Below are positions 1,344 through 20,939 of a DNA stretch of 60,247 nucleotides, piece by piece (positions within the stretch are counted from its first letter, which is position 1; each line of letters opens with the position of its first letter). The stretch is from Candidatus Aceula meridiana (GTDB lineage Bacteria > Omnitrophota > Gorgyraeia > Zapsychrales > Aceulaceae), in assembly GCA_030765185.1 (NCBI GenBank), contig JAVCDE010000011.1, positions 1 through 60,247 on the forward strand, written 5' to 3'. The position numbers and the translations under genes were made by a program. The notes below the pieces were generated by a model. The model saw only the letters and a program-made list of their open reading frames with translations. It searched no databases and had not been told where the DNA came from.

Positions 1344-2192
1344 ATGCCGGTTGATTTAAAAAAGATCGACAAGAAAAAAGCAGGCATTATCATTGTTGCT
1401 ATTGTTGCTGGGCTTGGGGCAGTAGCGTTAACAAACAATTATATTAATTCACAGGTTTCGCAAGGGGCTAATCCGGAAGCTATTGAACAGATGATGGGAA
1501 AAATTCAGCAGCTGGAACAAAACGACCAAGCTCTTTATGAAAAGCAGAAGGCAGCTGCCCAGCAGCTGAGCCAACAAATAAGCGCTGTCGCCCAGCAAAG
1601 GGCTCAGAGCCCGACTCGAGAATCAGGAGAAAAATCTCCTGTTGCCGACTCCTTGGCCTTAAGAACTCCTTCGAACAAAAGAGCTATTACCATTCAGATT
1701 CAAACGCTTTCTGCTGTCGGAGGGCTTTTGAATCCTGGAGATTATGTCGATATTTTGGCCCATCTTGATATTCCTTTAGATTTAGAGAATCCAGCGCAAG
1801 CATTTAAAACAATTGTTACGTTGTTTCAGCACGTTCAGATTTTGGCAATAGGGACAAATGTTAGCCAGCCATCAGATTTTGAGAGTCATCAAAAAGCTGG
1901 CAGTCTTCCGATTACTTTTGCCGTTGATCCGCAGCAAGCGGAGCTTTTAACTTTTGCGGAAAAAAACGGAAAGCTTCAGCTTATTTTAAGAAGTCCGGAA
2001 GAAGACCTTTCTTATCAAGTCGAACCAGCAAACTGGGGGTCGCTAGAAAAATATTTGCAAGAAACTCAAGGGATCGATATTAATGCGCCTGCAGAGCCTA
2101 ATCAGCCTAAAAAGAAAACGGCTACTCCTAAAAGAACACCTGCTCGCAGTATTCAGGTTATCCGCGCAGGAAAACCTGACGGCGGGAAATAA
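1344..2192 (+). CDS. cpaB: Flp pilus assembly protein CpaB/RcpC
   Basis: CpaB is a periplasmic Tad pilus protein thought to work with the secretin. Residues 11-30 form one membrane anchor (AGIIIVAIVAGLGAVAL). Residues about 45-85 are a Gln/Ala-rich coiled coil. The C-terminal half carries the CpaB/RcpC signature (ADSLALRTP, then ITIQIQTLSAVGGLLNPGDYVDILAHL in two adjacent blocks) and extends to a basic, Pro/Lys-rich tail. The usual complete N-terminal SAF half is not obvious, so this is a somewhat shortened version of the family. AGAGG lies a few bases before ATG 1344, and the gene starts 10 bases after the previous stop, consistent with one operon. Confidence 0.85.
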   Translation: MPVDLKKIDKKKAGIIIVAIVAGLGAVALTNNYINSQVSQGANPEAIEQMMGKIQQLEQNDQALYEKQKAAAQQLSQQISAVAQQRAQSPTRESGEKSPVADSLALRTPSNKRAITIQIQTLSAVGGLLNPGDYVDILAHLDIPLDLENPAQAFKTIVTLFQHVQILAIGTNVSQPSDFESHQKAGSLPITFAVDPQQAELLTFAEKNGKLQLILRSPEEDLSYQVEPANWGSLEKYLQETQGIDINAPAEPNQPKKKTATPKRTPARSIQVIRAGKPDGGK

Positions 2193-2204
2193 CACAAAAT
2201 TATT

Positions 2205-3881
2205 ATGACTCACAAACAGTTTAATTCTCGACAGAAGACTATCGCACTATTTCAAATTGTCTTTTTATTTATGTTTGTTTCGCTTGTTTTTTCTGCTTCT
2301 CCCTCCGAGAGGTACCTTACCAGCGAATCTGGAGAAATCCGTATGATCGTCGGAGATGTTCAAACTGTTTGGACTAAAGAGCTTACCCGCGTTTCGATTA
2401 CTAATCCTGAAGTAGCTGATGTTTTAGAAGTTGCTTCATCGGAGATTTCTCTTCTAGGCAAGAGGCCCGGAAAAACTGAACTTTTTGTTTGGGACAAGAC
2501 AGGCAAGCGATCGGTGCGCATTTGGGTTTTTAAAGAAACCCTAGAGCTTGTCGAGATGCGAATACAAGAACTTTTAAGAACGATAAAAATTGAAAACTTA
2601 ATGCTTGCAAGAAATGAGATGGAAGGAAAAATTGTTATTTCTGGGGAACTTGAAGAGAAAAAGCTTAAAGAATACAACCAGATTATCGAACCCTTTTCTG
2701 AAAGCATCATTAATTTAGTCCAAGAGCAAGAAGAAATTGAACTTGTTGAGATTGACGTACAAGTTGTTGAGATGAGCTCTTCTTATTTTCAGAACCTTGG
2801 CATCTCTTGGGCAAATAGCGATGGAGATAATAATCTTAATTGGAATGAAACGCTTCCGGACCTTCAACCAGGGCTAAAAGATTTTTTTAAGATAGGAGGC
2901 TTTACTAGAACTTCTTCTATTCAAGCAAGCGTTAATGCCCTTGTTACTCAAGGAAAAGCCAAAGTTCTTTCGCGCCCTAAACTCGTTGTTAAAAGCGGAG
3001 AAGATGCCTCTTTTCACGTGGGGGGGGAAATTCCTATTAGAACAACAACTATTTCTAGTGAAGGAACTGTAGAAAATATTACTTTTAAAACTTATGGGGT
3101 CGACCTTAATATTAAAGCTACGGTTAAAAACGATAAGAGCATCGACATAGATCTTAATGTTGATATTTCAGATATCGATGCCTCTAACAAAGCTGGGGAT
3201 GTTGTTGCTTATACGAATAGAACAGCAGCAACAAAGCTATTTTTAGATAACAAACAGACAGTTGTTTTAGCCGGGTTTATTAAAGAAAATAGGGCCGAAA
3301 CGATTAGCCGCATTCCCTTTTTAAGCGACATTCCTATCTTAGGCGCTTTATTTCGAAACAAGACAACAGATCCTGACAACTCGACAGAGCTTTTTATCAC
3401 CTTGACGCCTACAATTATTGCGCGAAGAGGAGAAGAAGAATCTCAAAAAGATGAAAAAGGAGTTGTAAAAGAGCAAACAGTTGAAGAAATTGTTGCCGGG
3501 CTCAATTTAGATGCGGATAAAAAGGAAGACAAAAAAGAAGCCCAAGCTTCTAAGCCTCCTGAGCCAATTTATCAGTCAGCATCTGTTCCAGGCAACCTGG
3601 CTTCGTATGTGCGCCGCATACAGGAAAAGATTGCTAAAAAATTAATCTATCCTCAAGCGGCTAAGGACGATAATCAGCAAGGACAGGTTGTTTTAGATGT
3701 TTCTGTGCATAAGGACGGAGGCCTTTTATTAGCTTCTGTCCGAGAGTCTTCCGGGCACACCCTCTTAGATGAAGCAGCACTACAAACAGCCAGACAAAAT
3801 TCGCCATACGGACACTTCCCCGAATTGATTAGCGCAGAAAAGCTGACCATTACCATCCCTATTGTTTATCGGCTTGAATAA
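2205..3881 (+). CDS. cpaC: Tad pilus secretin CpaC/RcpA with a C-terminal TonB-type domain
   Basis: This should form the outer-membrane ring through which the Flp pilus passes. Order: signal peptide (residues about 10-31, ending near FSAS), a pilus N-terminal domain (about 37-107, with GKTELFVW), a BON-like segment (about 125-170), and the secretin core (about 245-405) with AKVLSRPKLVV, GGEIPI, a VVLAGFI strand and IPFLSDIPILGALF. After a charged linker, residues about 465-558 form an unexpected TonB C-terminal-like domain: KLIYPQAA, GQVVLDVSVHKDG, SSGHTLLDEAAL and a Pro/Tyr end. This domain is not part of standard CpaC and may bind an inner-membrane or outer-membrane partner. The start ATG has no strong ribosome site; the gap after cpaB is only 12 bases, so coupling is likely. 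Confidence 0.88.
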   Translation: MTHKQFNSRQKTIALFQIVFLFMFVSLVFSASPSERYLTSESGEIRMIVGDVQTVWTKELTRVSITNPEVADVLEVASSEISLLGKRPGKTELFVWDKTGKRSVRIWVFKETLELVEMRIQELLRTIKIENLMLARNEMEGKIVISGELEEKKLKEYNQIIEPFSESIINLVQEQEEIELVEIDVQVVEMSSSYFQNLGISWANSDGDNNLNWNETLPDLQPGLKDFFKIGGFTRTSSIQASVNALVTQGKAKVLSRPKLVVKSGEDASFHVGGEIPIRTTTISSEGTVENITFKTYGVDLNIKATVKNDKSIDIDLNVDISDIDASNKAGDVVAYTNRTAATKLFLDNKQTVVLAGFIKENRAETISRIPFLSDIPILGALFRNKTTDPDNSTELFITLTPTIIARRGEEESQKDEKGVVKEQTVEEIVAGLNLDADKKEDKKEAQASKPPEPIYQSASVPGNLASYVRRIQEKIAKKLIYPQAAKDDNQQGQVVLDVSVHKDGGLLLASVRESSGHTLLDEAALQTARQNSPYGHFPELISAEKLTITIPIVYRLE

Positions 3882-3958: not shown

Positions 3959-6121
3959 ATGAGCGCAAACTCCATAGTTGTTTTTAGCACCAAAGGTGGC
4001 GTTGGAAAAACTTTTACGGCTGTCAACCTTGCTGTTAGCCTAAGTTTAAAGAAGAAAAAAGTTCTTCTTCTTGATTTTGATTTACAAGCGACCAATGACC
4101 TTGCCCGCATGATCAACATAAAAACCGGCCGTTCTATCGTCGACATTTTGACAAGCGGAGAGGCTCTTGAAAAAATTGAGATTATCAAAAAGCAAATTGT
4201 CCGTCACTCCTCCGGCATTGATTTTTTGGCTTGTGTTTCTCACATTAACCAAGTTCCTCAAATTGAACAAGAAAAGATTAAACTTTTTTTAAAGCACATT
4301 TCTTCTGCTTACGATTACATTGTGGTTGACGGAGGCAGGGCATTTACGGAAACCTTGATTACAGTTTTTGATAATTCTAATTTGATTTTACTTGTGACGA
4401 CTCCTGATGTTTTGGCTGTTTATCAAGCCAAGAATTCTCTCACTGTTTTAGAAAGCCTACATTTTCCAACCCAAATTATTAAACTAGTTTTAAATCGGTC
4501 GCAAAGCCGCGGAGGCGTTGCTTGGCAGGAGGTCCGTTCTGCTCTTCCGTGCGAAATTTTTGCCCAGATTCCTTCAGATGGGCGAGCCGTAGGTCTTGCC
4601 CTAAACAGAGGTGTTCCGTGTGTCATTGACGGCCCAGATAGCGCAACTTCAGAGGCTTTTTTTAAGATTGCGGATAACCTTTTAAAAGGAAAAGATATTT
4701 TTATGCAAGGCACTGATGTTGCTAAAGTTAGGACAATTACAGGTGCAGGACAAGACGATAATTTTTGGGAAAAATTTGGCATTTCTCAGCAGTCTATGGA
4801 AAGTCAAGAAGTTATGGCTGTTGTCAAAGAAACAGACGATATCATAAAGTTAAAGCAAGCTGTTCATGACAAGCTGGTTGACAAAATGAACTTAGGATCC
4901 CTTACAAGCGATGCTTTAAGCGATCCGGCACAAGCAAAAAAAATTCGTGAAAGCACTGAAAAAATTATTGGAGATCTTTTAGCAGAAGAAGCCGGCGCAG
5001 TTATTTCTTCTCATGAAGAACGTCGCCACTTAGTTAAAGAAATTGCCGATGAAACGTTAGGCTTAGGTCCTTTAGAGGAGTTTTTAGCCGACCCGGATGT
5101 TACAGATATCATGGTCAACAACAAGGATGAGCTATATATAGAGAAAAAAGGAAAGATTGTGTTAACGCAAAAAAAATTTATTTCTAACAGCCAAATCCGA
5201 TCGACCATTGAGCGCATCATTGCTCCTCTAGGAAGGCGCATTGATGAGTCGGTTCCTATGGTTGATGCCCGTCTTCCTGATGGCTCGCGTATTAATGCAA
5301 TTATTCCACCCTTGTCTCTAAGAGGGCCGATGCTAACTATCCGCAAGTTTTCCAAAGAGCGTATTACCGTTGAGGATCTTTTACATACTTATCATACGCT
5401 TTCACAGCCTATTGTGGATTTTTTAAAAGCAACTGTTGCGTGTCGAAAAAATATTATTATTTCTGGAGGAACTGGCTCTGGAAAAACAACGCTTTTAAAC
5501 ATTATTTCTTCTTTTATTTCCGACGAGGAGCGTATTTTGACGATTGAAGATGCCGCTGAGCTACAGTTAAGACAAAGGCATTGGGGGCGATTGGAGTCTC
5601 GCCCTGCTAACGTTGAAGGAAAAGGAGCCATCACAATCCGTGACCTTTTTGTCAACTCTCTTCGTATGCGGCCTGACAGGATTGTCATCGGTGAGTGCCG
5701 CGGGCCTGAAATTTTAGACATGTTGCAGGCGATGAACACCGGCCATGACGGATCAATGACAACCTTGCATGCGAATTCAACACGTGATGTTTTAGTTCGC
5801 ATGAGTACGATGATTTTGCTTAGTGGCCTTGACCTTCCTTTGAGGGCTATTTATGAAATGATTTCAACCGCTATTGATGTTGTAGTGCATGTTGCTCGTC
5901 TTTCTGATGGTTCTCGTAAAATTACAGGTGTTACAGAAATCGTTGGCCTTGACAACGAGAGAGATATTATTTTAAAAGATATCTTTTGTTTTCATCAAAC
6001 AGGGATCGCCGAAGGCGGAAAAGTTTTAGGAGACTTTAAGGCTACCGGATATATCCCGCAATGCTATGAAGATTTTATTACAAGAGGTATCCACGTCGAT
6101 AAGAGTATTTTTAATAAATAG
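3959..6121 (+). CDS. cpaF: Fused CpaE/TadZ-like ParA ATPase and CpaF/TadA pilus motor ATPase
   Basis: Residues 1 to about 250 are a ParA/MinD-type ATPase: deviant Walker A KGGVGKT at 12-18, LLLDFDLQATND after it, VVDGG near 115, and LNRSQS further on, as in CpaE/TadZ localisation factors but without their N-terminal receiver-like domain. After a linker, residues about 265-720 are a full-length CpaF/TadA secretion ATPase: GPLEEFLADPDVTDIMVN, Walker A GGTGSGKT at 503-510, RPDRIVIGECRG, and MTTLHANS as the His box. These are normally two adjacent genes; the frame here is continuous with no internal stop, so they are one 720-residue polypeptide that would place the localisation factor in the motor at a 1:1 ratio. 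No clear ribosome site precedes ATG 3959. Confidence 0.9.
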   Translation: MSANSIVVFSTKGGVGKTFTAVNLAVSLSLKKKKVLLLDFDLQATNDLARMINIKTGRSIVDILTSGEALEKIEIIKKQIVRHSSGIDFLACVSHINQVPQIEQEKIKLFLKHISSAYDYIVVDGGRAFTETLITVFDNSNLILLVTTPDVLAVYQAKNSLTVLESLHFPTQIIKLVLNRSQSRGGVAWQEVRSALPCEIFAQIPSDGRAVGLALNRGVPCVIDGPDSATSEAFFKIADNLLKGKDIFMQGTDVAKVRTITGAGQDDNFWEKFGISQQSMESQEVMAVVKETDDIIKLKQAVHDKLVDKMNLGSLTSDALSDPAQAKKIRESTEKIIGDLLAEEAGAVISSHEERRHLVKEIADETLGLGPLEEFLADPDVTDIMVNNKDELYIEKKGKIVLTQKKFISNSQIRSTIERIIAPLGRRIDESVPMVDARLPDGSRINAIIPPLSLRGPMLTIRKFSKERITVEDLLHTYHTLSQPIVDFLKATVACRKNIIISGGTGSGKTTLLNIISSFISDEERILTIEDAAELQLRQRHWGRLESRPANVEGKGAITIRDLFVNSLRMRPDRIVIGECRGPEILDMLQAMNTGHDGSMTTLHANSTRDVLVRMSTMILLSGLDLPLRAIYEMISTAIDVVVHVARLSDGSRKITGVTEIVGLDNERDIILKDIFCFHQTGIAEGGKVLGDFKATGYIPQCYEDFITRGIHVDKSIFNK

Positions 6122-7165: not shown

Positions 7166-7201
7166 GTGTCCACTACGTTCTGCAAAAATTGGATTTCATT
7201 T

Positions 7202-9162: not shown

Positions 9163-9543
9163 ATGGGATCTTATCTATTGAACCTGAAACTTGCATTAAA
9201 AAATTTTTGTTATTCTAAAAACATAAAACAAAAATGTTTAACAAAAAAAGTGTATTTAAATGCAAGCCGCTTTCCCTCGGTCCCACATTTATGGAGCCTC
9301 GCCTTTGACGAGGCATGGTGGTGGGGCTTGACCCCGCAAGTCGCAACAAGGCGCGACGCTGCGGCCCTTCGGGTGGATTTTGCATCAGCAAAACCCAGGT
9401 TGAAGAATTACAAAGGACAAAATTTAATTGAGTACGCTATTGTCATAGCGTTAGTTTCAGCTGCTATGGTCGCCATGAGTACGTATATCTTTCGCTCGGT
9501 TCAGGCGGTCCAAAAGCAGATCGACGGAGAACTACGGAATTAA
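9163..9543 (+). CDS. Flp-type pilin with an unusually long leader that contains a palindromic insert
   Basis: The C-terminal 47 residues are a Flp pilin: basic stretch, YKG, then QNLIEYAIVIALV with Glu at +5 and Tyr at +6 after the expected cleavage at Gly, and a hydrophobic helix. Before it lie about 80 residues, where the class III leader should be 10-25. Most of that extra sequence is encoded by a GC-rich run of hairpins (9296-9397) that looks inserted in frame. GGGAGAAGAA just before ATG 9163 supports this start. An in-frame TTG at 9400 next to the pilin part would give a normal leader but has no ribosome site. The gene may make a long-leader pilin, or be damaged in its start region. First gene of an eleven-gene array. 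Confidence 0.6.
   Translation: MGSYLLNLKLALKNFCYSKNIKQKCLTKKVYLNASRFPSVPHLWSLAFDEAWWWGLTPQVATRRDAAALRVDFASAKPRLKNYKGQNLIEYAIVIALVSAAMVAMSTYIFRSVQAVQKQIDGELRN
9296..9397. repeat. GC-rich nested palindromic element inside a pilin reading frame
   Basis: Within about 100 bases lie GCCTCG/CGAGGC (9296-9301 with 9309-9314), GGGG/CCCC (9323-9326 with 9332-9335), GTCGC/GCGAC (9340-9344 with 9353-9357), a CCC-ttc-GGG hairpin (9365-9373) and TTTTGC/GCAAAA (9378-9383 with 9388-9393). Base composition differs sharply from the AT-rich surroundings. The reading frame passes through without a stop, as in protein-coding palindromic elements of other bacteria. Confidence 0.6.
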
Positions 9544-9587
9544 CCATAGGTAAAAACCGTATTTATTTTAACGGTAAGGAGGATTTA

Positions 9588-9986
9588 ATGAAGGGGTTAA
9601 GAAAGAATAAAAAAAATAAAGGACAAAATGTCGCCGAATACGCCATTTTAATTGCTTTGGTTGTCGGTGCTATTTTAGCTATGCAGACATTTGCCAAGCG
9701 CGGTTTGCAGGCAAGAGTTCGTGACGTTACACAATTTATGGTGGACGAAACATCGTCAGCCGACCTTCCACCAGAAGTTCGATGGGGCAACACAGCGCAG
9801 TATGAACCATACTATTCTGAGAGCGCATATGAGACAACAAGAGAGACTAACGAACAAAAGGAACTAGTTGGAGAGACTAACTTTTTAATCGGTTCAAACG
9901 GAGTTTCTTCTCGCGCTGTCGGCGGTTCTCAGAGAACAACTTATAATGTTGATGCAGGGGCTATTAGTAACGGCATGGGTTTTTAA
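9588..9986 (+). CDS. Flp-type pilin with C-terminal extension (family 1)
   Basis: A short basic leader ends in NKG, followed by QNVAEYAILIALV: cleavage after Gly by a prepilin peptidase would leave Gln at +1, Glu at +5 and Tyr at +6. The hydrophobic helix ends in RGLQARVRD, and about 90 residues of polar, Tyr-rich extension follow (AQYEPYYSESAYE), longer than in the major Flp pilins of about 60-70 residues. The 10035 and 10803 genes share both the helix and the QYEPY motif, so the three are paralogues, probably minor or structural pilins with an exposed domain. AAGGAGGA precedes ATG 9588 at good spacing. Confidence 0.85.
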   Translation: MKGLRKNKKNKGQNVAEYAILIALVVGAILAMQTFAKRGLQARVRDVTQFMVDETSSADLPPEVRWGNTAQYEPYYSESAYETTRETNEQKELVGETNFLIGSNGVSSRAVGGSQRTTYNVDAGAISNGMGF

Positions 9987-10034
9987 CAAAAGATTTTACT
10001 GTTGGCATGGCAGGATAAGAAGGATGACATTAAA

Positions 10035-10487
10035 ATGAAACAGATACAAAAAGAAGATTTTAGAAAGAAACAGCAAAAGCGAAAAGGACAGAATGTCGCT
10101 GAATATGCAATTCTGATTTCTTTGGTTATTGGTTCTGTTTTAGCCATGCAGACGTTTGTGAAAAGAGGCTTGCAGGCAAGAACACGTGATACAACACAGT
10201 GGATGGTCGAGGAAACAGACATGCTTGGAGACACCGGGCAATATGAGCCGTATTTTTTTGAAAGTTCGTATGAAGTCGAAAAAGGAGTTGACGAGGTAAA
10301 AACTTTAACAGGCGACACCAACTTTGAAATTGATTCATACGGAAGGACTCATAGACAAGCAGGCGGCTATCAGAGGTCTACATATGAAGTGTCGCATGAT
10401 ATCGGAGACGGGATGAAGTTTGGCAGCGGCGGAGGCAGTTCTGTAGTTAATTGGACAGCAATAAACGAAGAAGAAGAAGAAGAATAG
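10035..10487 (+). CDS. Flp-type pilin with C-terminal extension (family 1)
   Basis: The mature start is KRKG then QNVAEYAILISLV, with Glu at +5 and Tyr at +6. After the helix come KRGLQARTRD and a GQYEPYFFESSYE block, then a Gly-rich stretch and six Glu at the very end. It is a paralogue of the pilins at 9588 and 10803. The frame is open from TTG 10002, but ATG 10035 has GAAGGA upstream and leaves a leader of 23-24 residues; I use that start. The acidic tail is peculiar to this copy. Confidence 0.8.
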   Translation: MKQIQKEDFRKKQQKRKGQNVAEYAILISLVIGSVLAMQTFVKRGLQARTRDTTQWMVEETDMLGDTGQYEPYFFESSYEVEKGVDEVKTLTGDTNFEIDSYGRTHRQAGGYQRSTYEVSHDIGDGMKFGSGGGSSVVNWTAINEEEEEE

Positions 10488-10551
10488 TTAAGTAGAAAAA
10501 TAGAAAAATAAGTTGTTTTGTATTTATCATCATTAATAAAAGGAGGAATCA

Positions 10552-10746
10552 ATGTTAAAGAGAAACCGAAAGAAAAAAGGCCAAAGCACCTTAGAGTATA
10601 TTATTTTAGTAGCTGCTCTTGTTTCTGGCCTTGTTGTTTTTCTTGCTAGCGATTCAAGTCCATTCAAGAAAGCTGTAAATCAAACCTATACCTCAGTGCT
10701 GGATGGAATGGAAAATAAAGCAACCGACATGGTAGATAGCTGGTAA
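10552..10746 (+). CDS. Short Flp pilin, candidate major pilin
   Basis: At 64 residues this is the only gene of the array with the size of a classic Flp major pilin. The leader MLKRNRKKKG is followed by QSTLEYIILVAALV, with Glu at +5 and Tyr at +6, one hydrophobic helix, and a short amphipathic end (LDGMENKATDMV). AGGAGG lies about 6 bases before the ATG, the strongest ribosome site in the array, which fits high expression. It is flanked by longer pilins on both sides. Confidence 0.85.
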   Translation: MLKRNRKKKGQSTLEYIILVAALVSGLVVFLASDSSPFKKAVNQTYTSVLDGMENKATDMVDSW

Positions 10747-10802
10747 TAAACACAAAAGCCTTTAGTTGTGACTAAAATAAGAATCTTAAGGAGGCAAAAA
10801 AA

Positions 10803-11168
10803 ATGATAAAACGTAATAAAAAAAAGAAAGGGCAGAATGTCGCTGAATATGCAATTTTGATTGCCCTTGTTGTCGGCGCAATTATTGCCATGCAAAAATT
10901 TGCCCAAAGAGGCCTGCAAGGAAGAGTTCGTGACGCAACGGAGTGGATGGTGGCTCAAGGAAATGATCAGATAGGACATAGTACGGGACAGTACGAGCCG
11001 TATTATTCTGAAAGCTCGTATGATGTTTATCGTGATTCTTCTGACACAAAGACATTATGCGGAGAAGTTAATTTTAAAGTTGATGCAGACACTGATGTTA
11101 CGCGAAATGGTTACCAGAGGACAATTTATGACGACACTCAAAATGTTGATGGAGGTATGAATTTTTAA
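10803..11168 (+). CDS. Flp-type pilin with C-terminal extension (family 1)
   Basis: The leader MIKRNKKKKG is followed by QNVAEYAILIALV with the Flp Glu/Tyr pair. The helix ends in QRGLQGRVRDATEWMV, and the extension carries GQYEPYYSESSYDV and ends in GGMNF, echoing GMGF and GMKF in the two other family members (9588, 10035). A single Cys lies in the extension. AAGGAGG precedes the ATG. Confidence 0.85.
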   Translation: MIKRNKKKKGQNVAEYAILIALVVGAIIAMQKFAQRGLQGRVRDATEWMVAQGNDQIGHSTGQYEPYYSESSYDVYRDSSDTKTLCGEVNFKVDADTDVTRNGYQRTIYDDTQNVDGGMNF

Positions 11169-11242
11169 AGATGCAGAAATCCAAGGGAGTTAGTTAACAA
11201 TAATGAAGTTAATTTCCCGTTAAAGAAAAAAAAGGGGGAAAA

Positions 11243-11572
11243 ATGCTTAAGAAAATTAGAAAAAGAAAGAAAACAAAAGGCCAAAGCACTCTCGAATATG
11301 CTGTCTTAGTTGTTGTTGTCTTAGGAGCTTTAATGGCTGTGCAGCAGTATCTCTCGCGCGGTATCCAAGGTCGGGCTAAACAAGCCACTGACGATATTAG
11401 CGATACGCAGTTTGTTCCTGACCAGACAGTTTATACAAAGACAGTAGTAACAGCATCAAACACAAAAGAAATGGCCCAAGGAGGCGAAACAAATTCTGAA
11501 CTGCAGGGAGATGCGGATGAAACAACAACAACGACGATTGATATGTATTTCGACAACACGTTGACGCCATAA
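11243..11572 (+). CDS. Flp-type pilin (family 2, copy 1)
   Basis: The leader ends in RKKTKG, then QSTLEYAVLVVVV with Glu at +5 and Tyr at +6. The helix leads into SRGIQGRAKQATDDISDTQF. The first 57 codons are nearly identical in DNA to those of the neighbour at 11675, after which the C-terminal parts diverge (here Thr/Asp-rich, ending in DNTLTP). This is a recent tandem duplication with a fast-changing exposed end. GGGGGA precedes the ATG. Confidence 0.85.
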   Translation: MLKKIRKRKKTKGQSTLEYAVLVVVVLGALMAVQQYLSRGIQGRAKQATDDISDTQFVPDQTVYTKTVVTASNTKEMAQGGETNSELQGDADETTTTTIDMYFDNTLTP

Positions 11573-11674
11573 AAGAAGTAGAAAAATAGAATAAAGAAGT
11601 GGTTGTTATCTTTAAGATAACAAGAAAGCATGCAAAAAATAATAAATTTTACGTGCTAAAATCAAGGAGGCACA

Positions 11675-11983
11675 ATGCTTAAGAAAATTAGAAAAAGAAA
11701 GAAAACAAAAGGCCAAAGCACTCTAGAATATGCTGTCTTAATTGTTGTTGTCTTAGGAGCTTTAATGGCTGTGCAGCAGTATATCGCGCGCGGTATCCAA
11801 GGTAGGGCTAAACAAGCCACTGACGATATTAGCGATACACAGTTTGACCCTAGTATTACGCGGCACATTAAGACGACCAATACCTCCAGCACGACAAATG
11901 AAATCTCTTTAGATGGAGAGACATGGTCAAACATGTTGGCGCCTGAAGTAACAAATACAAAAATAAATATGTACTTTGAATAG
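11675..11983 (+). CDS. Flp-type pilin (family 2, copy 2)
   Basis: This is the second member of the tandem pair with 11243. Leader and helix are almost the same (TKG then QSTLEYAVLIVVV, followed by ARGIQGRAKQATDD); the last 45 residues differ and end in INMYFE, close to IDMYFD in the sister. AAGGAGG lies 6 bases before the ATG. A strong hairpin with a T6 run follows the gene at 12029-12077 and may end the upstream half of the array. Confidence 0.85.
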   Translation: MLKKIRKRKKTKGQSTLEYAVLIVVVLGALMAVQQYIARGIQGRAKQATDDISDTQFDPSITRHIKTTNTSSTTNEISLDGETWSNMLAPEVTNTKINMYFE

Positions 11984-12028
11984 TTAGCAGGCGTGGAAAT
12001 TACAGAAGCTTTGGTAGTTATGATTTAA

Positions 12029-12077
12029 GCGTAGGGGACTTTTCATCAAGAACAGGGGTCGTTCCCTGCGCTTTTTT
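12029..12077 (+). terminator. Intrinsic terminator inside the pilin array
   Basis: GCGTAGGGGAC (12029-12039) pairs with GTTCCCTGCGC (12061-12071) over 11 bp, including G-U pairs, with a 21-base loop, and is followed at once by six T (12072-12077). It would stop or reduce transcription after the seventh pilin gene, separating 9163-11983 from 12153 onward. The 170-base gap around it holds no gene that I can see. Confidence 0.65.
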
Positions 12078-12152
12078 GCGGGCAGCATTAATGAGAGTAA
12101 TCGTAGAACTATCGCGAAAAATGGTAAAAAATTAGGAAAGGCGGCATAGTAA

Positions 12153-12581
12153 GTGCTATTTTTTAAAAAAAATATAAAAGCTCAGGTTATTTCTGAGTTT
12201 TCTATGGTTTTAGGGATTGCTATATTAGCGGTTGTGTCAATGATGGTTTTTGTTCAAAGAGGCCTACAAGGACGCATTCGTGACGCCAGAGAGTATGTAT
12301 CTGTGACGTTAGATAGCGAAGCAGACGCAGCCAGACTACAGCGCACAGGAGGCGCGGTTCCTGCTGGGAGCTTTCCTGATGTTCTTTATGGATATGAGCC
12401 ATATTATCAAAAAAAAGGAGCTGTTGTTGAGAGAGATGCGAATCAAATGACAGATTTTTCAGGAACGCAAGGAACGCATAAAAAAAGTATTAATTCAAGA
12501 ACGAGCATGCAAAGCGTATCAGAAGAAGCGCCGGCAGAAAATGATTTCTGGTGGGGCAATGCTGTTATCCCTGGGGAGTAG
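12153..12581 (+). CDS. Divergent Flp-type pilin with C-terminal extension
   Basis: It starts with GTG 12153, supported by AAGGCGG upstream. The signal is altered: NIKA then QVISEFSMVLGIA, with Ala in place of Gly before the cleavage site and Phe in place of Tyr at +6, while Glu at +5 is kept. The following QRGLQGRIRDAREYV and GYEPYYQKKG link it to the family 1 pilins at 9588, 10035 and 10803. It is probably a minor pilin. It is the first gene after the internal terminator. Confidence 0.75.
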   Translation: MLFFKKNIKAQVISEFSMVLGIAILAVVSMMVFVQRGLQGRIRDAREYVSVTLDSEADAARLQRTGGAVPAGSFPDVLYGYEPYYQKKGAVVERDANQMTDFSGTQGTHKKSINSRTSMQSVSEEAPAENDFWWGNAVIPGE

Positions 12582-12604
12582 CGGGAAAAGATACGGGAAA
12601 AAAT

Positions 12605-12937
12605 ATGAAACAAATAAAGAAAAAAGCGCAGTCTTTAACTGAATATACGATTGTTGCCGGAATTATTGCTGTTGTTTTGGTTGCCATGGGAACTCCTTTT
12701 CGAAGAACGATTCAGCGCGTTGTCAAAGATGTTTGCGACGTCATTGGCTTGCAGGCTGATGCCGAGCAGGCTTCCGAAGACATTACTCAAGGGCAGCTGA
12801 TCAATAGTGCTTTTGATTCTACCGCGACAATGACACAGTTAAAAGATGGCTCTGCAGGCGTTCAGACAGCACAAAAATTGGGACGGACGTCTGCGAACAG
12901 CATTTCTTATTCAAGCGGAGGGGTCGTCGATGATTAA
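12605..12937 (+). CDS. Flp-type minor pilin
   Basis: The protein is 110 residues: leader MKQIKKKA, then QSLTEYTIVAGIIAVVLVAMG, with Ala before the cleavage site and Glu/Tyr at +5/+6. The rest is polar with Gln, Ser and Thr and no Cys. An in-frame GTG lies upstream at 12551 inside the previous gene, but the signal begins only at ATG 12605. It overlaps the next gene by 8 bases (12930-12937), so the two are translated together. Confidence 0.8.
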   Translation: MKQIKKKAQSLTEYTIVAGIIAVVLVAMGTPFRRTIQRVVKDVCDVIGLQADAEQASEDITQGQLINSAFDSTATMTQLKDGSAGVQTAQKLGRTSANSISYSSGGVVDD

Positions 12938-13262
12938 GCAAATTTCAAAAAAACAAACGGGTTTTTTAAGAGGGCAAACGCTTTTAGAATATGCCTTTTT
13001 AGCTGTAGTTGTTATGGTGGCCTTGATGGTTGTCCAACGTTATGTACAAAGAGGCATGCAGGGAAAATGGATGGATAGCTTGAGCAGCCTCGATAGCCAA
13101 TATGACCCTCAGGCAGATATTCAATCTAATCATTACACAGAAGCTGAGTCTAGAACAGTGACGAGCGTTGAGGATGGCGGAGGTGGAGGAGTCTACACCC
13201 AGCGTACAGATACAAGCAATATGAATGAAATAGTAAACGAAATCGTAACCGTAACATACTAA
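12930..13262 (+). CDS. Flp-type minor pilin
   Basis: ATG 12930 lies inside the end of the previous gene and has GGAGGGG about 6 bases before it. The leader MIKQISKKQTGFLRG is followed by QTLLEYAFLAVVVMVALMVV with Glu at +5 and Tyr at +6, then QRGMQGKWMD, similar in position to the RGLQGR motif of the other pilins. The C-terminal part has a Gly run and many Thr. Length 110 residues. Confidence 0.8.
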   Translation: MIKQISKKQTGFLRGQTLLEYAFLAVVVMVALMVVQRYVQRGMQGKWMDSLSSLDSQYDPQADIQSNHYTEAESRTVTSVEDGGGGGVYTQRTDTSNMNEIVNEIVTVTY

Positions 13263-13266
13263 AAAA

Positions 13267-13689
13267 ATGAATAAGAATAGGCATAAAAAAAAAGCATTCT
13301 CAACTCTGGAATATACAGCATGTATTGTTTTTATAATTGCATCTTTGATGATTATGAGAAAACCCATCGCCCGTATTTTTATGGGTCGATGGAAAACCTT
13401 AGGCGATAGTTTTATGCATGGACAGCAGCTTGATTATGACCCGAACGTGACTAGAGAATGCGGCCAGTATGTGCCTATCGTAGATCCTGAGGAATTGCCG
13501 CTTGTTTGGGGAGATCCGGTTTGGTATAACTACAGGTGTTATGAGTGCTGTATGGATAGAATTGGGCCGACTACGTGCCCAGCGGGTCTTGCCACAGCGG
13601 CAGACCTTTTGGGTTGCCGGGCTGAGGCTGATCCTCTGTTGCGACGAGCATGTTGCGCTGATGCTTGCAAAGACGAGGATTGTAATTAA
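13267..13689 (+). CDS. Pilin-like protein with a cysteine-rich C-terminal domain
   Basis: The N-terminus is a Flp-type signal (KKKA then FSTLEYTACIVFIIASLMIM, with Glu at +5 and Tyr at +6). Unlike the other pilins, the last 75 residues hold about eleven Cys, several adjacent (YECCMD, ACCADAC, EDCN), in the same style as the TadE-like protein that follows and the partial protein at the left edge. It may be a bridge or tip pilin stabilised by disulfides. It starts 4 bases after the previous stop. Confidence 0.8.
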   Translation: MNKNRHKKKAFSTLEYTACIVFIIASLMIMRKPIARIFMGRWKTLGDSFMHGQQLDYDPNVTRECGQYVPIVDPEELPLVWGDPVWYNYRCYECCMDRIGPTTCPAGLATAADLLGCRAEADPLLRRACCADACKDEDCN

Positions 13690-15607: not shown

Positions 15608-15892
15608 ATGCGAAATAAAGACATCAACAAGAAATATAACATAAAACGAAAAGCCCAAGTTACCTTGGAGTTTGTTTTTTGTTTTTTTATTGTGATGCTT
15701 ATTTTTTATAGCTGTGTTAAAGCGCTACAATGGTTGGGCAAAGCACTTATCGGTCCTCATTATCAACAATCTCGTGCATATGACAGTGATGGCGGCTTGC
15801 GCGAAGTTGTGGATCAAATGGATGCTCCTGTTGATCAGTATACGCCTTTGCGTTTAATGTATCGCAATAAAACTTTTGGTGGTTCTTATTAA
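15608..15892 (+). CDS. Small TadE-like pseudopilin
   Basis: The 94-residue protein begins with a basic segment and IKRKA, then QVTLEFVFCFFIVMLIFYSC, a TadE-like membrane segment with Glu at +5. The remainder is short and polar. AAGGACAGG runs from the end of the previous gene up to ATG 15608. Such small TadE/TadF-type proteins sit next to TadG in many Tad loci. Confidence 0.7.
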   Translation: MRNKDINKKYNIKRKAQVTLEFVFCFFIVMLIFYSCVKALQWLGKALIGPHYQQSRAYDSDGGLREVVDQMDAPVDQYTPLRLMYRNKTFGGSY

Positions 15893-15917: not shown

Positions 15918-18900
15918 ATGTTGCAAACAATAAATAAAATAATGAAAGATTGTCTCCGAATAAAAAAGAGAAATCGTGATCGCGCAAGAGGACAAATTGC
16001 GATTATTTTGCTTGTTGTTATCAGCATAGTGCTTATGCTCGTTGCCGTTGCCATTAACCTTGGCAAAATTTCTATGACAAAAACCCAGATGCAGATTACG
16101 GCTGACTCTACGGCAGCATCTTTGGCATCAAATATGGCAAGTTATAGTGAGAGCCTTTATAGGACGATTATTTTGCCTTCAAGGCAAACAGGAGACCATG
16201 GAAAGAATTTTGGCTTAACGCGTAGAAATTCAAGCGAAAGACTTTCAACGATGATTACAATAGTCATTTGTGCTGTTGCGATTATTATTTCTTGCATTTG
16301 TCCTCCGACATCCGCGCTTACGGCACCATTGTTAGCTAGCGGCATCATCGGAGGTATTGTTTCAACAGGGGCGCTTGTCTATCAAACTGCGGTGGTTGAA
16401 CCGATGTTTCAAAGTATGTGGGCGAAACAGTTTAAAGACCTGCCTTATGCAGACCAGTTTATTAAGATGGGGACAAATTTTGCTCTTCAGTCGGCTGCTA
16501 CAGATTCTGTTCAAATTCCGGATACCGGAGATTATAATATGGATGGGTTTTATTGTCAGGAGGACAACCCGAATTGTGCGTATAAAACCAGCCGTTTTGG
16601 TGTAAAGGTAACGAAGGGGAGCACGAGCACTATTCCCGAGAGCGCCGTAAACAAGGCGAAAAGATTTGGTCAGACTTTAGCTAGCTTTATGTTTTCGCAG
16701 AACTATGCATCAGGGCTTGACAGAAGCATTGTGATTGATCCAAACTATCTTTTGACTGCTCCGGATGGCGTTTTTGTGCCGGATGAGTGGGGTGTTTTTG
16801 ATCATGATGGAATCAAAGGAGCCAATACGCATGATCCTTCCTCGACGACTTTAGGTGATTTGGACCCCTGCCTGACGGACAATCAGTGCAACCCTGCATG
16901 CATTCCTCAAAAATCTTCTTATAATTCACACGTGGATCTTTATTCTGTTTATGAAAACTTAGCCTTAACATCTGGCCAAACTAAATGCCCAGGAACAACT
17001 GATATCGATCCAGAGATTTGCTCAGACCCTAATACGCCGTGGTGTTTTGCCGGAGATGAGCTTTATGAGGATCCTGACAACACTTTTGAATCTTTTCGTG
17101 AATTGATAGGGCGTGATGATGAGAACATGTATCTTTTAGGCGGCATGAGCAAGCAGCTTCGTGACCTGAATGCTGTTAAGCTATTAGCAGCAGACAAGCA
17201 GTTTAGCAGCAAGGACGCAACGGGTGTTTACGAGGCACTTTGGAAACTATATTTGACAGATTTAGACAAGTCAACTTCTCCTTTTCAATTTGTTAATGGA
17301 GGAGAATGTTTTTGGAAAACAACAGATGCGTCTGGATGCGAAGATACTGGGCTTTGGGAGCTTCAATCTGTCGGGGGAAATGGACCTCCTCCATGTGCTC
17401 CAAACTGCTATGTTCGCTCTAATATAGATCCTTTGAAGGTAACTGGCATGACGGGAAACGAAAACCTCTGCTATTCTGACGACGAGGATGTTCCAGAGGA
17501 AGATTTTTTCTGGAAGAAGGGCGTTAATGCTTATTGCAACGACTATGAACCTCCGTATTATATGTGTGATCAAAAGAGCTGTGACGCGGGATCGCCAAAT
17601 TGTGAGCAAAATTGTCAGACTCCTGAGGCTGCGGAAGAAGCTTGTGAGCTTTATTCCTGCAATGAAGATGAAGAAGGTGATTCTGTTCCTAACCAGGAGC
17701 TTTGGAGAAGCGACAGAGCTGAGACTTTACGAGAAAGTGAAGGTATTGATGATTTTGTTAAATTTGCTTATAGTTTGCTACGAAAAACTCCTAATAATTT
17801 AATCAGAGATTTAAATAGCTGGTATCCTATTTTTCTTCAGTGGAGAGATATTTATTTGCCTGAATGGGCAGAGAGGATTGATGAACTTCAGGGTTTTTAT
17901 CAAGATTTTGATACTTGGACTGCAAGCGAAGACCCAAATTATTTCTGTCCGAAAGGATGTGCCGATTCTGCTGCCTGCACCAAGGATGAGGTTGCCACAT
18001 GCTTGTCAACCAAGAAAAATGTCTATGACGCTTGCCTCACCGATTGCACCGCTGCTAATTGTACAGACATCGCCACAGAGCTTGGAGTTGCCTTCGACTC
18101 CTGCAGCGCTTCTTTTAAACAAACAGCACATCTTTATCGGGAAATGTTTCGTTATCGCGGGGAACTCTTGACAAGCCTTACAAATGATTATGATGACCTT
18201 TTTACACTAGGGCCAGATGGCAAATTAACCATAGCCAGAACAAACATTTATGGATTTTTATCTGATTATAATATTAACAATAACCTCCTCGACCTTGATG
18301 CCTCGCTTAACTCTGGAGAATGGTTAGGGTTTGATAAAGGAATATATGTTTGGAAAGACGCAGACGAGCCTGATGGCACAGTAGGGCTTTGGCACGTTGT
18401 ACGTACTGATGTTAAAATTCCTACGCGCTGCAACGAACAATGCTTTAGAGATCTGGAGCCTGATTCGAAATATAATGATGGTGATAACTTTCCTGCCGAA
18501 GAGCCGAATTTTCCTGAGATTGTGCGCTGGGATCGCGGTGGCGCAAATGTTTTTCATACTCTAACAGACTATAACTGTAAAGGACGATGCGGTATTCATA
18601 ATTATAAGGAAAATAAGAACAATTATGATAAATGTGGTTCGGGAAGAAGGAACAAGACAAGCTATAAAGAGGATCAGGTGAACGGCGGCGACAACAACGG
18701 GAACAACAAATGTTTTAAAGGCGGGCTTGTCGGTGCGAGGGTTGCGCGCTATGATCAGCCAAGATCTCAAGCTTTTTCATGGGCTACAAACGTAGAGTTC
18801 TGGAAAACTTTGTTTAAAAATCCTTCTGTTGCGACTGTCGTTTCTCCCAATATAAATGCTGTTTGCTCGGATTATCTTGATCTGGGAAATCCAGAGGGAG

Positions 18901-19151
18901 AGGCTTTTTTTATTGTGAAGAGAATTGCTGGGGGACCTGAGCAGAATGCGCCGTGCTGGGATCACTTGAACGTGCTTTTAAATCAAGGAACGCAGGCTAT
19001 TTCTTGTGCTGAATATTATTGCCGGATGAACTCGACTGCACCGTCTGAGCGAGGCCCAAATAAGTCTAAGGATGTAGCAGAAGAGACATCTATGTTTGGG
19101 ATGCGTTTTACCGAATGCCCCGGTGGTAGGCCTTTTATAACAGTTCCCTAA
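15918..19151 (+). CDS. Giant TadG-like Flp pilus assembly protein
   Basis: Residues 24-48 are the TadE/TadG N-terminal signature: RGQIAIILLVVISIVLMLV followed by AVAINLGKISMTKTQMQ and an Ala/Ser-rich helix, as in TadG. A second hydrophobic region lies at about residues 110-165 (ICAVAIIISCICPP, then GIIGGIVSTGALVY). With 1,077 residues it is about twice the usual TadG size. Most of the rest is an extracytoplasmic region with dozens of Cys arranged in small knots (NCEQNCQTPEAAEEACELYSC broken across lines, CPKGCADSAAC and CLTDCTAANC). No intact von Willebrand A domain is obvious. AAGGGA lies 9 bases before ATG 15918; the longer frame from 15876 overlaps the previous gene. Confidence 0.75.
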   Translation: MLQTINKIMKDCLRIKKRNRDRARGQIAIILLVVISIVLMLVAVAINLGKISMTKTQMQITADSTAASLASNMASYSESLYRTIILPSRQTGDHGKNFGLTRRNSSERLSTMITIVICAVAIIISCICPPTSALTAPLLASGIIGGIVSTGALVYQTAVVEPMFQSMWAKQFKDLPYADQFIKMGTNFALQSAATDSVQIPDTGDYNMDGFYCQEDNPNCAYKTSRFGVKVTKGSTSTIPESAVNKAKRFGQTLASFMFSQNYASGLDRSIVIDPNYLLTAPDGVFVPDEWGVFDHDGIKGANTHDPSSTTLGDLDPCLTDNQCNPACIPQKSSYNSHVDLYSVYENLALTSGQTKCPGTTDIDPEICSDPNTPWCFAGDELYEDPDNTFESFRELIGRDDENMYLLGGMSKQLRDLNAVKLLAADKQFSSKDATGVYEALWKLYLTDLDKSTSPFQFVNGGECFWKTTDASGCEDTGLWELQSVGGNGPPPCAPNCYVRSNIDPLKVTGMTGNENLCYSDDEDVPEEDFFWKKGVNAYCNDYEPPYYMCDQKSCDAGSPNCEQNCQTPEAAEEACELYSCNEDEEGDSVPNQELWRSDRAETLRESEGIDDFVKFAYSLLRKTPNNLIRDLNSWYPIFLQWRDIYLPEWAERIDELQGFYQDFDTWTASEDPNYFCPKGCADSAACTKDEVATCLSTKKNVYDACLTDCTAANCTDIATELGVAFDSCSASFKQTAHLYREMFRYRGELLTSLTNDYDDLFTLGPDGKLTIARTNIYGFLSDYNINNNLLDLDASLNSGEWLGFDKGIYVWKDADEPDGTVGLWHVVRTDVKIPTRCNEQCFRDLEPDSKYNDGDNFPAEEPNFPEIVRWDRGGANVFHTLTDYNCKGRCGIHNYKENKNNYDKCGSGRRNKTSYKEDQVNGGDNNGNNKCFKGGLVGARVARYDQPRSQAFSWATNVEFWKTLFKNPSVATVVSPNINAVCSDYLDLGNPEGEAFFIVKRIAGGPEQNAPCWDHLNVLLNQGTQAISCAEYYCRMNSTAPSERGPNKSKDVAEETSMFGMRFTECPGGRPFITVP

Positions 19152-19195: not shown

Positions 19196-20053
19196 ATGTT
19201 ACTTGCTATCATTCTTCTTATTTTTACATGCGCTTTTCTTTTGGCATATCTTATTTTGCCAAGAGTTTTTCAGGTTGTAAAGGTTGTTGCCAACAAGCGC
19301 GAAAAAAAACTTTCCGATAAAATGGATGCGATGTATTTGCAATCTAAGGGAAAGCGGGTGATGTTGGTTTATGCCTTGGCCCCTATTATCTTTGGCGGCC
19401 TTGGTTTTTTTCTTTTTGCTGGACAACTTCGGCTTTTTGCCGTGATCGGTGGAATTGTTCTTGGATTCGTCGGGCCGGGAATATATTTTAAGTTTCTTGT
19501 CGGCAGACGAAAGAAGATGTTTTATAACCAGCTTATTGATTCTTTGATGATGATGAATAGCTCACTAAAAGGTGGCTTAAGCCTTTTGCAAGCTATGGAA
19601 GTTGTTGCTGATGAAATGCCGATTCCGATTAGTCAAGAATTTGCTATTCTTATAGGAGAGAATAAGATGGGTGTTTCATTGGAAACATCTTTTGATAGGC
19701 TCTACAAACGGATGGAATCTGCTGCCCTTCAGCAGTTTATTTCGGCAGTTCTTTTGGCGCGTGAAACCGGCGGAAACCTCCCAATCATTTTTAACCGCAT
19801 TATTGGAACCATCCGGGAAAATAAAAAAATTCAACAAAATATCGAAACCCTTACCCTTCAAGGAAAGCTGCAGGGCTTTGTTATGTCTCTTTTGCCGATA
19901 GGATTTGCAGCTTTTATTTACACCTCCACCCCTGAGCATTTTGACATTATGCTTGAATCTACTTTGGGGCGTAATCTTTTAGGTCTGGCTGCAATTCTGG
20001 AAGTTGTTGGGGCTATTATGATTATAAAAATTAGTCAAATTAAGGAATTCTAA
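19196..20053 (+). CDS. tadB: Tad pilus inner-membrane platform protein TadB
   Basis: The protein has 285 residues and the T2SSF platform architecture: two N-terminal membrane helices (residues 2-20; about 55-95), a cytoplasmic domain with QLIDSLMMMNSSLKGGLSLLQAME and LARETGGNLPIIF, and two C-terminal helices. TadB and TadC together form the inner-membrane platform driven by the CpaF ATPase. It lies 44 bases after TadG and 4 bases before tadC. No strong ribosome site is seen. Unusually, it sits far from cpaF, with the pilin array between them. Confidence 0.88.
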   Translation: MLLAIILLIFTCAFLLAYLILPRVFQVVKVVANKREKKLSDKMDAMYLQSKGKRVMLVYALAPIIFGGLGFFLFAGQLRLFAVIGGIVLGFVGPGIYFKFLVGRRKKMFYNQLIDSLMMMNSSLKGGLSLLQAMEVVADEMPIPISQEFAILIGENKMGVSLETSFDRLYKRMESAALQQFISAVLLARETGGNLPIIFNRIIGTIRENKKIQQNIETLTLQGKLQGFVMSLLPIGFAAFIYTSTPEHFDIMLESTLGRNLLGLAAILEVVGAIMIIKISQIKEF

Positions 20054-20057
20054 TTAT

Positions 20058-20939
20058 ATGCTAGTTATGATTCTTATCTTAGCTTTTTTTTCAGTTTTTA
20101 CTTTTGTCTTAGGTGTCGCTTCAGCGATTCAACTAGAGGGCCGTCCCACGCTGGACAGAATCATTGGAAGGACTACCCAGAAAAAACAGAGATTTGGGAT
20201 TTTTCGTCACTTAATACGGGCACTAATGTTTTTTAACAAACCTCTTTGCGCTGGCCCCATAGGAGAGCGCATGAGGAAGGATTTAAATTTATCACGCGTA
20301 GGGCTTTTCCCTGAGGAATTTATTTTTGTTAAGGAATCAGCCGTCATTCTTTTATTGTTTATTACCTATCCTTATTCTGATCCGAACAACAGAATGTTTT
20401 GGCTCATTGCAATGATTGCGGCAGGATGGTATTTGCCGGAGTTCTGGATCAAGACAAAAATTAAGAAAATTAAGAACCAGGTTATTAAAGACCTTCCTGA
20501 TGCGATTGATCTTTTGTCTCTTTGTGTTAATGCTGGGCTGGATTTCTTGTTGGCTCTAAAATGGGTTATTGATAAATCTGTGCCTTCGATTCTTATTTTA
20601 GAGTTGAATCATGTCTTGCAAGAAGTCCAGGTTGGTAAGCCTAGAAGAGATGCTTTAGTTGATTTTGCAAATAAGTATCAGATTCCGGACCTTTCCACTT
20701 TTACCCGGGCTTTGGTCCAAGCAGACCGCATGGGAACCTCTGTTTCTGACGCCTTAAATATTATTTCAGAAGATATGCGTGTTTCTCGCTTCCGAAGAGG
20801 CGAGCAAACAGCTCTTAAAGCACCTTTAAAAATGCTCTTCCCTCTTTTGTTTTGTATCTTCCCCGTTGTTGGCATTCTTGTTGCCGGGCCGATTCTTTTA
20901 CAGTTTATGCAAGAAAATCCTCTCAAAGCTCTATCATAG
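20058..20939 (+). CDS. tadC: Tad pilus inner-membrane platform protein TadC
   Basis: The protein has 293 residues with the T2SSF fold: an N-terminal helix, a pair of helices near residues 98-130, a cytoplasmic domain with LPDAIDLLSLCVNAGLDFLLAL and FTRALVQADRMGTSVSDAL, and a last helix (LFPLLFCIFPVVGILVAGP). It starts 4 bases after tadB, so translation is coupled. It is the last recognised gene of the Tad locus; the next gene is the giant one, behind a 651-base control region. Confidence 0.88.
   Translation: MLVMILILAFFSVFTFVLGVASAIQLEGRPTLDRIIGRTTQKKQRFGIFRHLIRALMFFNKPLCAGPIGERMRKDLNLSRVGLFPEEFIFVKESAVILLLFITYPYSDPNNRMFWLIAMIAAGWYLPEFWIKTKIKKIKNQVIKDLPDAIDLLSLCVNAGLDFLLALKWVIDKSVPSILILELNHVLQEVQVGKPRRDALVDFANKYQIPDLSTFTRALVQADRMGTSVSDALNIISEDMRVSRFRRGEQTALKAPLKMLFPLLFCIFPVVGILVAGPILLQFMQENPLKALS

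What the first reader, a model, noticed from the sequence alone, without database searches (positions are those of the whole stretch)
9163..13689. Array of eleven Flp-type prepilin genes
Most Tad loci have one or a few pilins. Here one short candidate major pilin (10552) sits among ten longer, diverging ones, with three families and a nearly identical pair. A set of interchangeable minor pilins suggests varied binding surfaces, fitting for a cell that attaches to different hosts or prey.
Basis: partly seen in the sequence, partly recalled or inferred. Interest (0 to 1): 0.65.

Follow-up and report, generated by a model that had tools for sequence, protein, structure and literature searches.

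The report
Eight-part Tad pilin gene array
The eleven pilin genes are real: an uncultured Omnitrophota bacterium and its relatives build their attachment pili from a fixed, ordered set of eight different small pilins where most bacteria have one to three, and this genome carries three extra copies with altered ends.

Summary
In detail: eleven intact Flp-type prepilin genes lie between tadZA and the tadE/G-tadB-tadC genes. They are not mainly a pool of interchangeable minor pilins. They fall into eight classes (P1-P8), each with its own length and motifs. The order P1-P2-P3-P4-P5-P6-P7 is kept in 31 loci of the same order, apart from extra copies of P2-P4 and a local rearrangement in the window. 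All eight classes occur in 27 of those 31; the other four lack only P8 and come from short stretches. The set also appears, less neatly, in more distant Omnitrophota. Non-Omnitrophota Tad loci have 0-4 short Flps (median 1). The window is the eight-class set plus two extra P3 and one extra P4. Extra copies occur only in P2, P3 and P4. These three have much stronger ribosome-binding sites, and a terminator-like hairpin often follows P4 and never occurs in other gaps. I infer a heteropolymeric Tad filament: P2/P3/P4 form the abundant shaft, and the rest are low-copy. In several lineages, extra copies share a recent 5' half (filament core) but have old, divergent 3' halves; for those copies the 'varied surface' idea is plausible. 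No expression or binding data exist here. New variant of a known system.

The parts
1344..2192 (+). RcpC/CpaB
   Evidence: Pfam PF16976, 2.1e-23
2205..3881 (+). RcpA/CpaC secretin with a C-terminal TonB_C domain
   Evidence: Pfam PF00263 6.5e-42, PF03544 1.6e-14
3959..6121 (+). TadZ-TadA fusion (ParA-like plus T2SSE ATPase)
   Evidence: Pfam PF13614 and PF00437; 55-75% identical full-length orthologues in most same-order relatives
9163..9543 (+). P1 pilin: 41-aa mature part; leader up to 78 aa because of a dispersed repeat at about 9319-9405
   Evidence: Flp_Fap PF04964 4.6e-4, below the curated cut-off; class P1 in all complete relatives with 4-14 aa leaders; repeat has 13 copies in the genome
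9588..9986 (+). P3 pilin, copy a
   Evidence: class P3, QYEPYY motif
10035..10487 (+). P3 pilin, copy b
   Evidence: class P3
10552..10746 (+). P2 short pilin (54-aa mature part)
   Evidence: class P2; PF04021 class III signal 3.7e-4, below the curated cut-off
10803..11168 (+). P3 pilin, copy c
   Evidence: class P3; AlphaFold2: one helix 8-53, rest unmodelled
11243..11572 (+). P4 pilin, copy a
   Evidence: class P4; 5' half 93% identical DNA to 11675
11675..11983 (+). P4 pilin, copy b
   Evidence: class P4; AlphaFold2: one helix 16-54, rest unmodelled
12053..12075 (+). terminator-like hairpin plus T-tract between P4 and P5
   Evidence: pattern scan; same position in 13 of 25 loci against 0.1 expected and 0 of 167 in other gaps
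12153..12581 (+). P5 pilin (GTG start, EYEPYY-like motif)
   Evidence: class P5, present in all complete relatives
12605..12937 (+). P6 pilin
   Evidence: class P6; weak Flp_Fap 1.7e-3
12930..13262 (+). P7 pilin (QYDP motif)
   Evidence: class P7
13267..13689 (+). P8 pilin, cysteine-rich; sits upstream of tadB in other families
   Evidence: class P8
13703..15598 (+). TadX: TadE-like pseudopilin with a C-terminal domain of about 600 aa
   Evidence: prepilin motif KAQAAIEL; orthologues directly follow the array
15608..15892 (+). TadE-like small pseudopilin
   Evidence: prepilin motif; orthologues
15918..19151 (+). TadG-like large pseudopilin
   Evidence: Pfam PF13400 above cut-off; homologues in 26 of 40 loci
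19196..20053 (+). TadB
   Evidence: Pfam T2SSF
20058..20939 (+). TadC
   Evidence: Pfam T2SSF

Best explanation
This is the pilin-subunit block of an Omnitrophota Tad (type IVc) pilus that is built from many different Flp subunits. The ancestral block in this order encodes eight different Flp-type pilins in fixed order (shown). P2, P3 and P4 carry the strongest translation signals and end at a terminator-like hairpin, so they are most likely the abundant shaft subunits of a heteropolymeric filament (inferred). P1, P5-P8 and the TadX/TadE/TadG pseudopilin trimer are most likely made in small amounts and act as adapter, initiation and tip subunits (inferred from weak ribosome-binding sites, position after the hairpin, and analogy with Myxococcus Kil). 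Only P2-P4 are duplicated from lineage to lineage (shown). In several lineages the copies share a recently exchanged or duplicated 5' half, which packs the filament core, while keeping old, different 3' halves that would face outward (sequence pattern shown; process and role inferred). In this genome that process gives three P3 and two P4 genes, eleven pilins in all.
For: Eight classes in fixed order in 31 same-order loci: 27 with all eight, and the other four lack only P8 on short stretches. Genes group by class, not by genome: 26 changes on the tree against 97.8 when shuffled. Distant named Omnitrophota have similar P1-P2-P3-P4 blocks. 42 of 117 sampled genomes match a P3-type profile, nearly all with several matches, and own-genome matches lie only in this array. 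Extra copies: P2 in 9 loci, P4 in 6, P3 in 5, none in P1 or P5-P8, of 32 loci. Ribosome-binding energy about -9 to -10 kcal/mol for P2-P4 against -2 to -6 for the rest, p=4e-27, stronger in 29 of 32 loci. Terminator-like hairpin in 13 of 25 gaps before P5 against 0 of 167 elsewhere, p=1e-13. 5'/3' mosaics: window P4 pair 3/39 against 11/20 synonymous codon differences, p=1.2e-4; L084 P4 p=3e-5; L043 and L039 about 0.005; orthologue control equal in both halves.
Against: No expression, proteomic or structural data. Ribosome-binding and terminator signals are proxies. A hairpin was found in only about half of the gaps before P5. The three window P3 copies do not show the mosaic clearly (one of three pairs, p=0.04), and older duplicates in other loci are diverged in both halves. 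Mosaic pairs were chosen after a first look at all pairs, so their p-values are optimistic. Deep branches of the pilin tree are weakly supported (57 columns). AlphaFold2 did not model the C-terminal parts, so their exposure is inferred.
Confidence: 0.62

Rival explanations
1. One reading: one major pilin (10552) and ten interchangeable minor pilins that give the cell alternative binding surfaces for different hosts or prey.
For: The extra P2/P3/P4 copies have divergent C-terminal parts with conserved cores. Kil pili use interchangeable minor-pilin tips to act on different prey (PMC12075869).
Against: The base set is eight orthologous, ordered, length-conserved classes, which argues for non-redundant roles. 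Duplication avoids P1 and P5-P8. P3 and P4 have ribosome-binding sites as strong as P2. In Bdellovibrio, flp mutants lost predation but not prey binding (PMC5430801).
Confidence: 0.15
2. Classical Tad pilus: one of the two short pilins (P1 or P2) alone forms the shaft; P3-P8 are all low-copy accessory or pseudopilin-like subunits of a long tip or periplasmic complex.
For: P1 is the best Flp_Fap match. P1 and P2 have the length of known Flps. Known Tad systems have one major pilin (PMC12075869).
Against: P3 and P4 have the same strong ribosome-binding sites as P2 and lie before the hairpin; P1's site is weaker. In this genome P1 has a repeat in its leader.
Confidence: 0.2
3. Neutral tandem duplication: the extra copies are redundant and drifting, without role.
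For: Copy number differs between close relatives (11 in the window and G001, 8 in G002).
Against: All copies in the array are intact with start and ribosome-binding signals. 5' halves are under strong constraint in most pairs (for the window pairs dN 0.03-0.2 against dS 0.1 to saturated). Old duplicates persist, e.g. the P2-P3-P4 triplet copies in L054 and L075.
Confidence: 0.08

Closest known systems
Tad/Flp (type IVc) pilus systems (Aggregatibacter, Caulobacter, Pseudomonas)
   Same: RcpC, RcpA, TadZ, TadA, TadB, TadC, TadE/G-like proteins and Flp-type prepilins in one locus
   Different: Eleven Flp-type genes in eight classes, most with mature parts of 90-130 aa, instead of one to three of 40-55 aa; TadZ and TadA are fused (the fusion also occurs in other phyla)
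Myxococcus xanthus Kil pilus (KilP, KilK, KilO, KilL/M/N tips; PMC12075869)
   Same: A Tad pilus with many pilins; a pseudopilin trimer with a large distal domain resembles TadX/TadE/TadG; sequence variation in exposed parts
   Different: In Kil the multiplicity lies in the tip trimers (four sets), with one major and two adapter Flps. Here it lies in the Flp subunits, with one trimer in the locus
Bdellovibrio and like organisms, flp1-flp4 (PMC5430801)
   Same: Predatory lineage, several Flp genes with separate roles; [quoted passage not shown]
   Different: Two to three Flps in the tad locus, the rest elsewhere; no ordered eight-class array
Omnitrophota Tad loci (Seymour et al. 2023, PMC10066038; Velamenicoccus archaeovorus LiM)
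   Same: Same phylum and Tad machinery; Tad and giant ORFs were proposed as predation traits
   Different: The passages I read treat TadB, TadC and RcpA; I found no description of the pilin complement
Two-major-pilin type IV pili (Streptococcus sanguinis, PMC6497953)
   Same: Precedent for a heteropolymeric type IV filament (known to me; the paper came up and was not read)
   Different: Not Tad; two pilins, not three abundant classes plus five others

Membership tests
Tad/Flp pilus system | TadA ATPase, TadB/TadC, RcpA secretin, RcpC and TadZ in one locus | tested here: met
Tad/Flp pilus system | Flp-type prepilins with G/XXXXEY and a hydrophobic helix | tested here: met
   in many relatives P5 has E shifted by one or replaced by D or Q
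Tad/Flp pilus system | TadE/TadF/TadG-like pseudopilins | tested here: met
   15918-19151 matches PF13400 above cut-off; 13703 and 15608 have pseudopilin motifs
Tad/Flp pilus system | Prepilin peptidase (TadV) available | tested here: met
   One Peptidase_A24 gene in the genome, not in the locus
Tad/Flp pilus system | Extends and retracts a filament | not testable with these tools
   needs cells
Flp_Fap pilin family PF04964 | Score above the curated cut-off | tested here: not met
   Best scores 20.4 (P1) and 18.6 (P6) against a cut-off of 32.2; P2-P5 and P7 no match; P8 none; no relevant NCBIfam match for the eight array genes tested
Kil-type predatory Tad pilus | Several KilL/M/N-like tip sets | tested here: not met
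   Only one TadX/TadE/TadG set in the locus; the rest of the genome was not searched for further sets
Kil-type predatory Tad pilus | Contact-dependent killing | not testable with these tools
   uncultured organism
Silent-cassette antigenic variation (Neisseria pilE/pilS type) | Promoterless, truncated donor copies elsewhere feeding one expressed gene | tested here: not met
   A P3 profile hits only this array in the own genome; all array copies are intact with start signals

The most novel reading that the evidence does not exclude
An obligately heteropolymeric Tad filament: three dedicated shaft pilins (P2, P3, P4), perhaps one per strand of a three-start helix, with five further dedicated subunits. 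The tandem P2-P4 copies work as an in-place surface-diversifying system, in which gene conversion keeps the filament-core halves alike while the exposed halves differ. No such Tad pilus is described in the papers I found.
Probability: 0.3. Interest if true: 0.82.

Novelty: new variant of a known kind. Interest (0 to 1): 0.6.

Why it matters
Known Tad pili have one major pilin, and known elaborations lie at the tip. A phylum-level Tad variant with eight different Flp subunits, three of them apparently abundant, would change the view of how simple these filaments are. It gives a concrete candidate for the contact organelle of a phylum suspected of predation. The class profiles make the pilins, missed by Pfam and NCBIfam, easy to find. 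The conserved-core, variable-end copies make a direct test of surface diversification possible in uncultured predators by comparing population genomes.

Tried and rejected
Sigma-54 promoter pattern: no more matches than chance. Sigma-70 pattern in the array: 11 found, 11.4 expected. Pfam, NCBIfam and PDB searches for the longer pilins: nothing relevant. AlphaFold2 on P3 and P4 with 12-row alignments: single helix, C-terminal part unmodelled; a fold search on such models was not worth running. My first motif scan missed P5 in most relatives because its glutamate is shifted; the profile search corrected a false 'P5 lost' reading. A wrong frame for the TadG query was corrected. Covariation of the P4/P5 hairpins was not pursued: the alignment across families is poor. 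Silent-cassette antigenic variation was considered and rejected.
Full report
Setting. The window is a whole contig (G000:C20) of a 1.9-Mb, 95%-complete genome. The closest named relatives of its TadZ-TadA protein are Candidatus Omnitrophota (51-59% identity). The array sits in a Tad locus: RcpC 1344, RcpA secretin 2205, TadZ-TadA 3959, pilins 9163-13689, TadX 13703, TadE-like 15608, TadG-like 15918, TadB 19196, TadC 20058. One prepilin peptidase gene lies elsewhere in the genome.

Observation. Eleven intact Flp-type ORFs are present as stated. The first gene, 9163, has a mature part of only 41 aa. Its leader is long because a dispersed repeat (13 genome copies) lies just before the cleavage site, whereas relatives have leaders of 4-14 aa. 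The pair 11243/11675 is near-identical only in its 5' 194 nt.

Eight classes. I fetched 40 stretches from same-order relatives. Profiles sort the pilins into eight classes with class-specific lengths and motifs: P1 about 41 aa; P2 about 54; P3 about 110 with QYEPYY; P4 about 97 with KRGIQGR and DDIGDQF; P5 about 120 with EYEPYY; P6 about 101 with ADqiG.Q..AEQ; P7 about 96 with GRWK and GdQYDP; P8 cysteine-rich with GRWK, YDP and TxEC (lower case: less conserved). The order P1-P2-P3-P4-P5-P6-P7-TadX-TadE holds in every complete locus apart from extra P2-P4 copies (and one locus, L043, where no TadE was detected). P8 lies before TadX in the window's family and before TadB in the others. All eight classes occur in 27 of 31 same-order loci; the four without P8 are short stretches that may end before it. 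The window is rearranged locally: P1 P3 P3 P2 P3 P4 P4 P5 P6 P7 P8. Five distant Omnitrophota loci have the P1-P2-P3-P4 block, some with P3-P4 pairs repeated (L084). On a tree of 128 pilins the sequences group by class, not genome: 26 label changes against 97.8 when shuffled, though deep forks are weak.

Baseline. In 71 non-Omnitrophota loci from the same search, the scan found 0-4 short Flps (median 1). Its 13 hits of 85-145 aa, one each in 13 loci, read mostly as TadE-like by eye; some loci do not span the pilin genes. In a sample of 117 genomes drawn from the phylum, 42 match a P3-type profile at E <= 1e-6, nearly all with several matches. The eight own-genome matches all lie on this contig, and the six listed are in this array.

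Two tiers. With one rule for all classes (nearest ATG), anti-SD pairing averages about -9 to -10 kcal/mol for P2, P3 and P4 and -2 to -6 for P1, P5-P8, TadX and TadE (Mann-Whitney p=4e-27; stronger in 29 of 32 loci). A hairpin followed by a T-tract occurs in 13 of 25 gaps before P5 (24 P4/P5, one P2/P5), against 0.1 expected from shuffles, none on the reverse strand and none in 167 other gaps. In the window it is at 12053-12075. Extra copies fall only in P2 (9 loci), P4 (6) and P3 (5). Four loci repeat the whole P2-P3-P4 triplet (L043, L054, L070, L075).

Mosaic copies. For several within-genome pairs, codons for unchanged residues rarely differ in the 5' half but differ at near-saturated rates in the 3' half: window P4 3/39 against 11/20 (p=1.2e-4), L084 P4 1/41 against 9/18 (p=3e-5), L043 P3 and P4 and one L039 P4 pair p about 0.005. 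Orthologue controls are saturated equally in both halves (P4: 0.53 and 0.58), so the 5' half is not simply constrained. The 5' identity often includes the ribosome-binding site and leader. I read this as exchange or partial duplication of the core-forming half between copies with older, different ends. Pairs were selected after a first look at all pairs, and the window's P3 copies do not show it clearly. The youngest L084 pair has pN 0.33 and pS 0.24 in the 3' half, a weak hint of selection for change.

Structure. AlphaFold2 gives P3 and P4 one long helix (residues 8-53 and 16-54, best confidence in the membrane part) and leaves the rest unmodelled. No solved structure is a credible match for P3.

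How it probably works. Shown: the anatomy, the classes and order, the signals, the duplication pattern and the mosaics. Inferred: P2/P3/P4 copolymerise into the shaft; P1 and P5-P8 are low-copy adapter or initiation subunits; TadX/TadE/TadG form a tip trimer like KilL/M/N (PMC12075869). In Bdellovibrio, tad-linked Flps are needed for predation but not prey binding (PMC5430801), so a role in penetration or killing is as open as adhesion. Tad and giant ORFs were already linked to predation in Omnitrophota (PMC10066038), but I found no account there or elsewhere of this pilin set; subscription papers and preprints were not searchable.

Noticed in passing
21591-60245: A giant ORF of more than 12,885 aa, almost free of cysteine, starts just after TadC and runs off the contig. 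The same-genus genome G001 has one of at least 14,881 aa in the same place. A cysteine motif near the start (LNCGVYAL) resembles peptidase C39; not tested.
   Followed up: partly
9319-9405: Dispersed repeat with 13 copies in the genome, inserted in frame in the P1 leader; another copy abuts the second TadA-like gene at C32:147255-147334.
   Followed up: partly
2205-3881: The RcpA secretin carries a C-terminal TonB_C domain.
   Followed up: no
7166-8893: A 575-aa ORF of unknown family between TadZA and P1, kept at the same position at 25-42% identity in the relatives inspected.
   Followed up: no
12153-12581: In relatives the P5 glutamate is often shifted by one residue or replaced by D or Q, as might suit a subunit at a filament end; the window copy is canonical.
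   Followed up: partly
L083:12925-14031 and L091:20405-21562: In two distant Omnitrophota the P6-class pilin has grown to a mature part of 364-381 aa.
   Followed up: no
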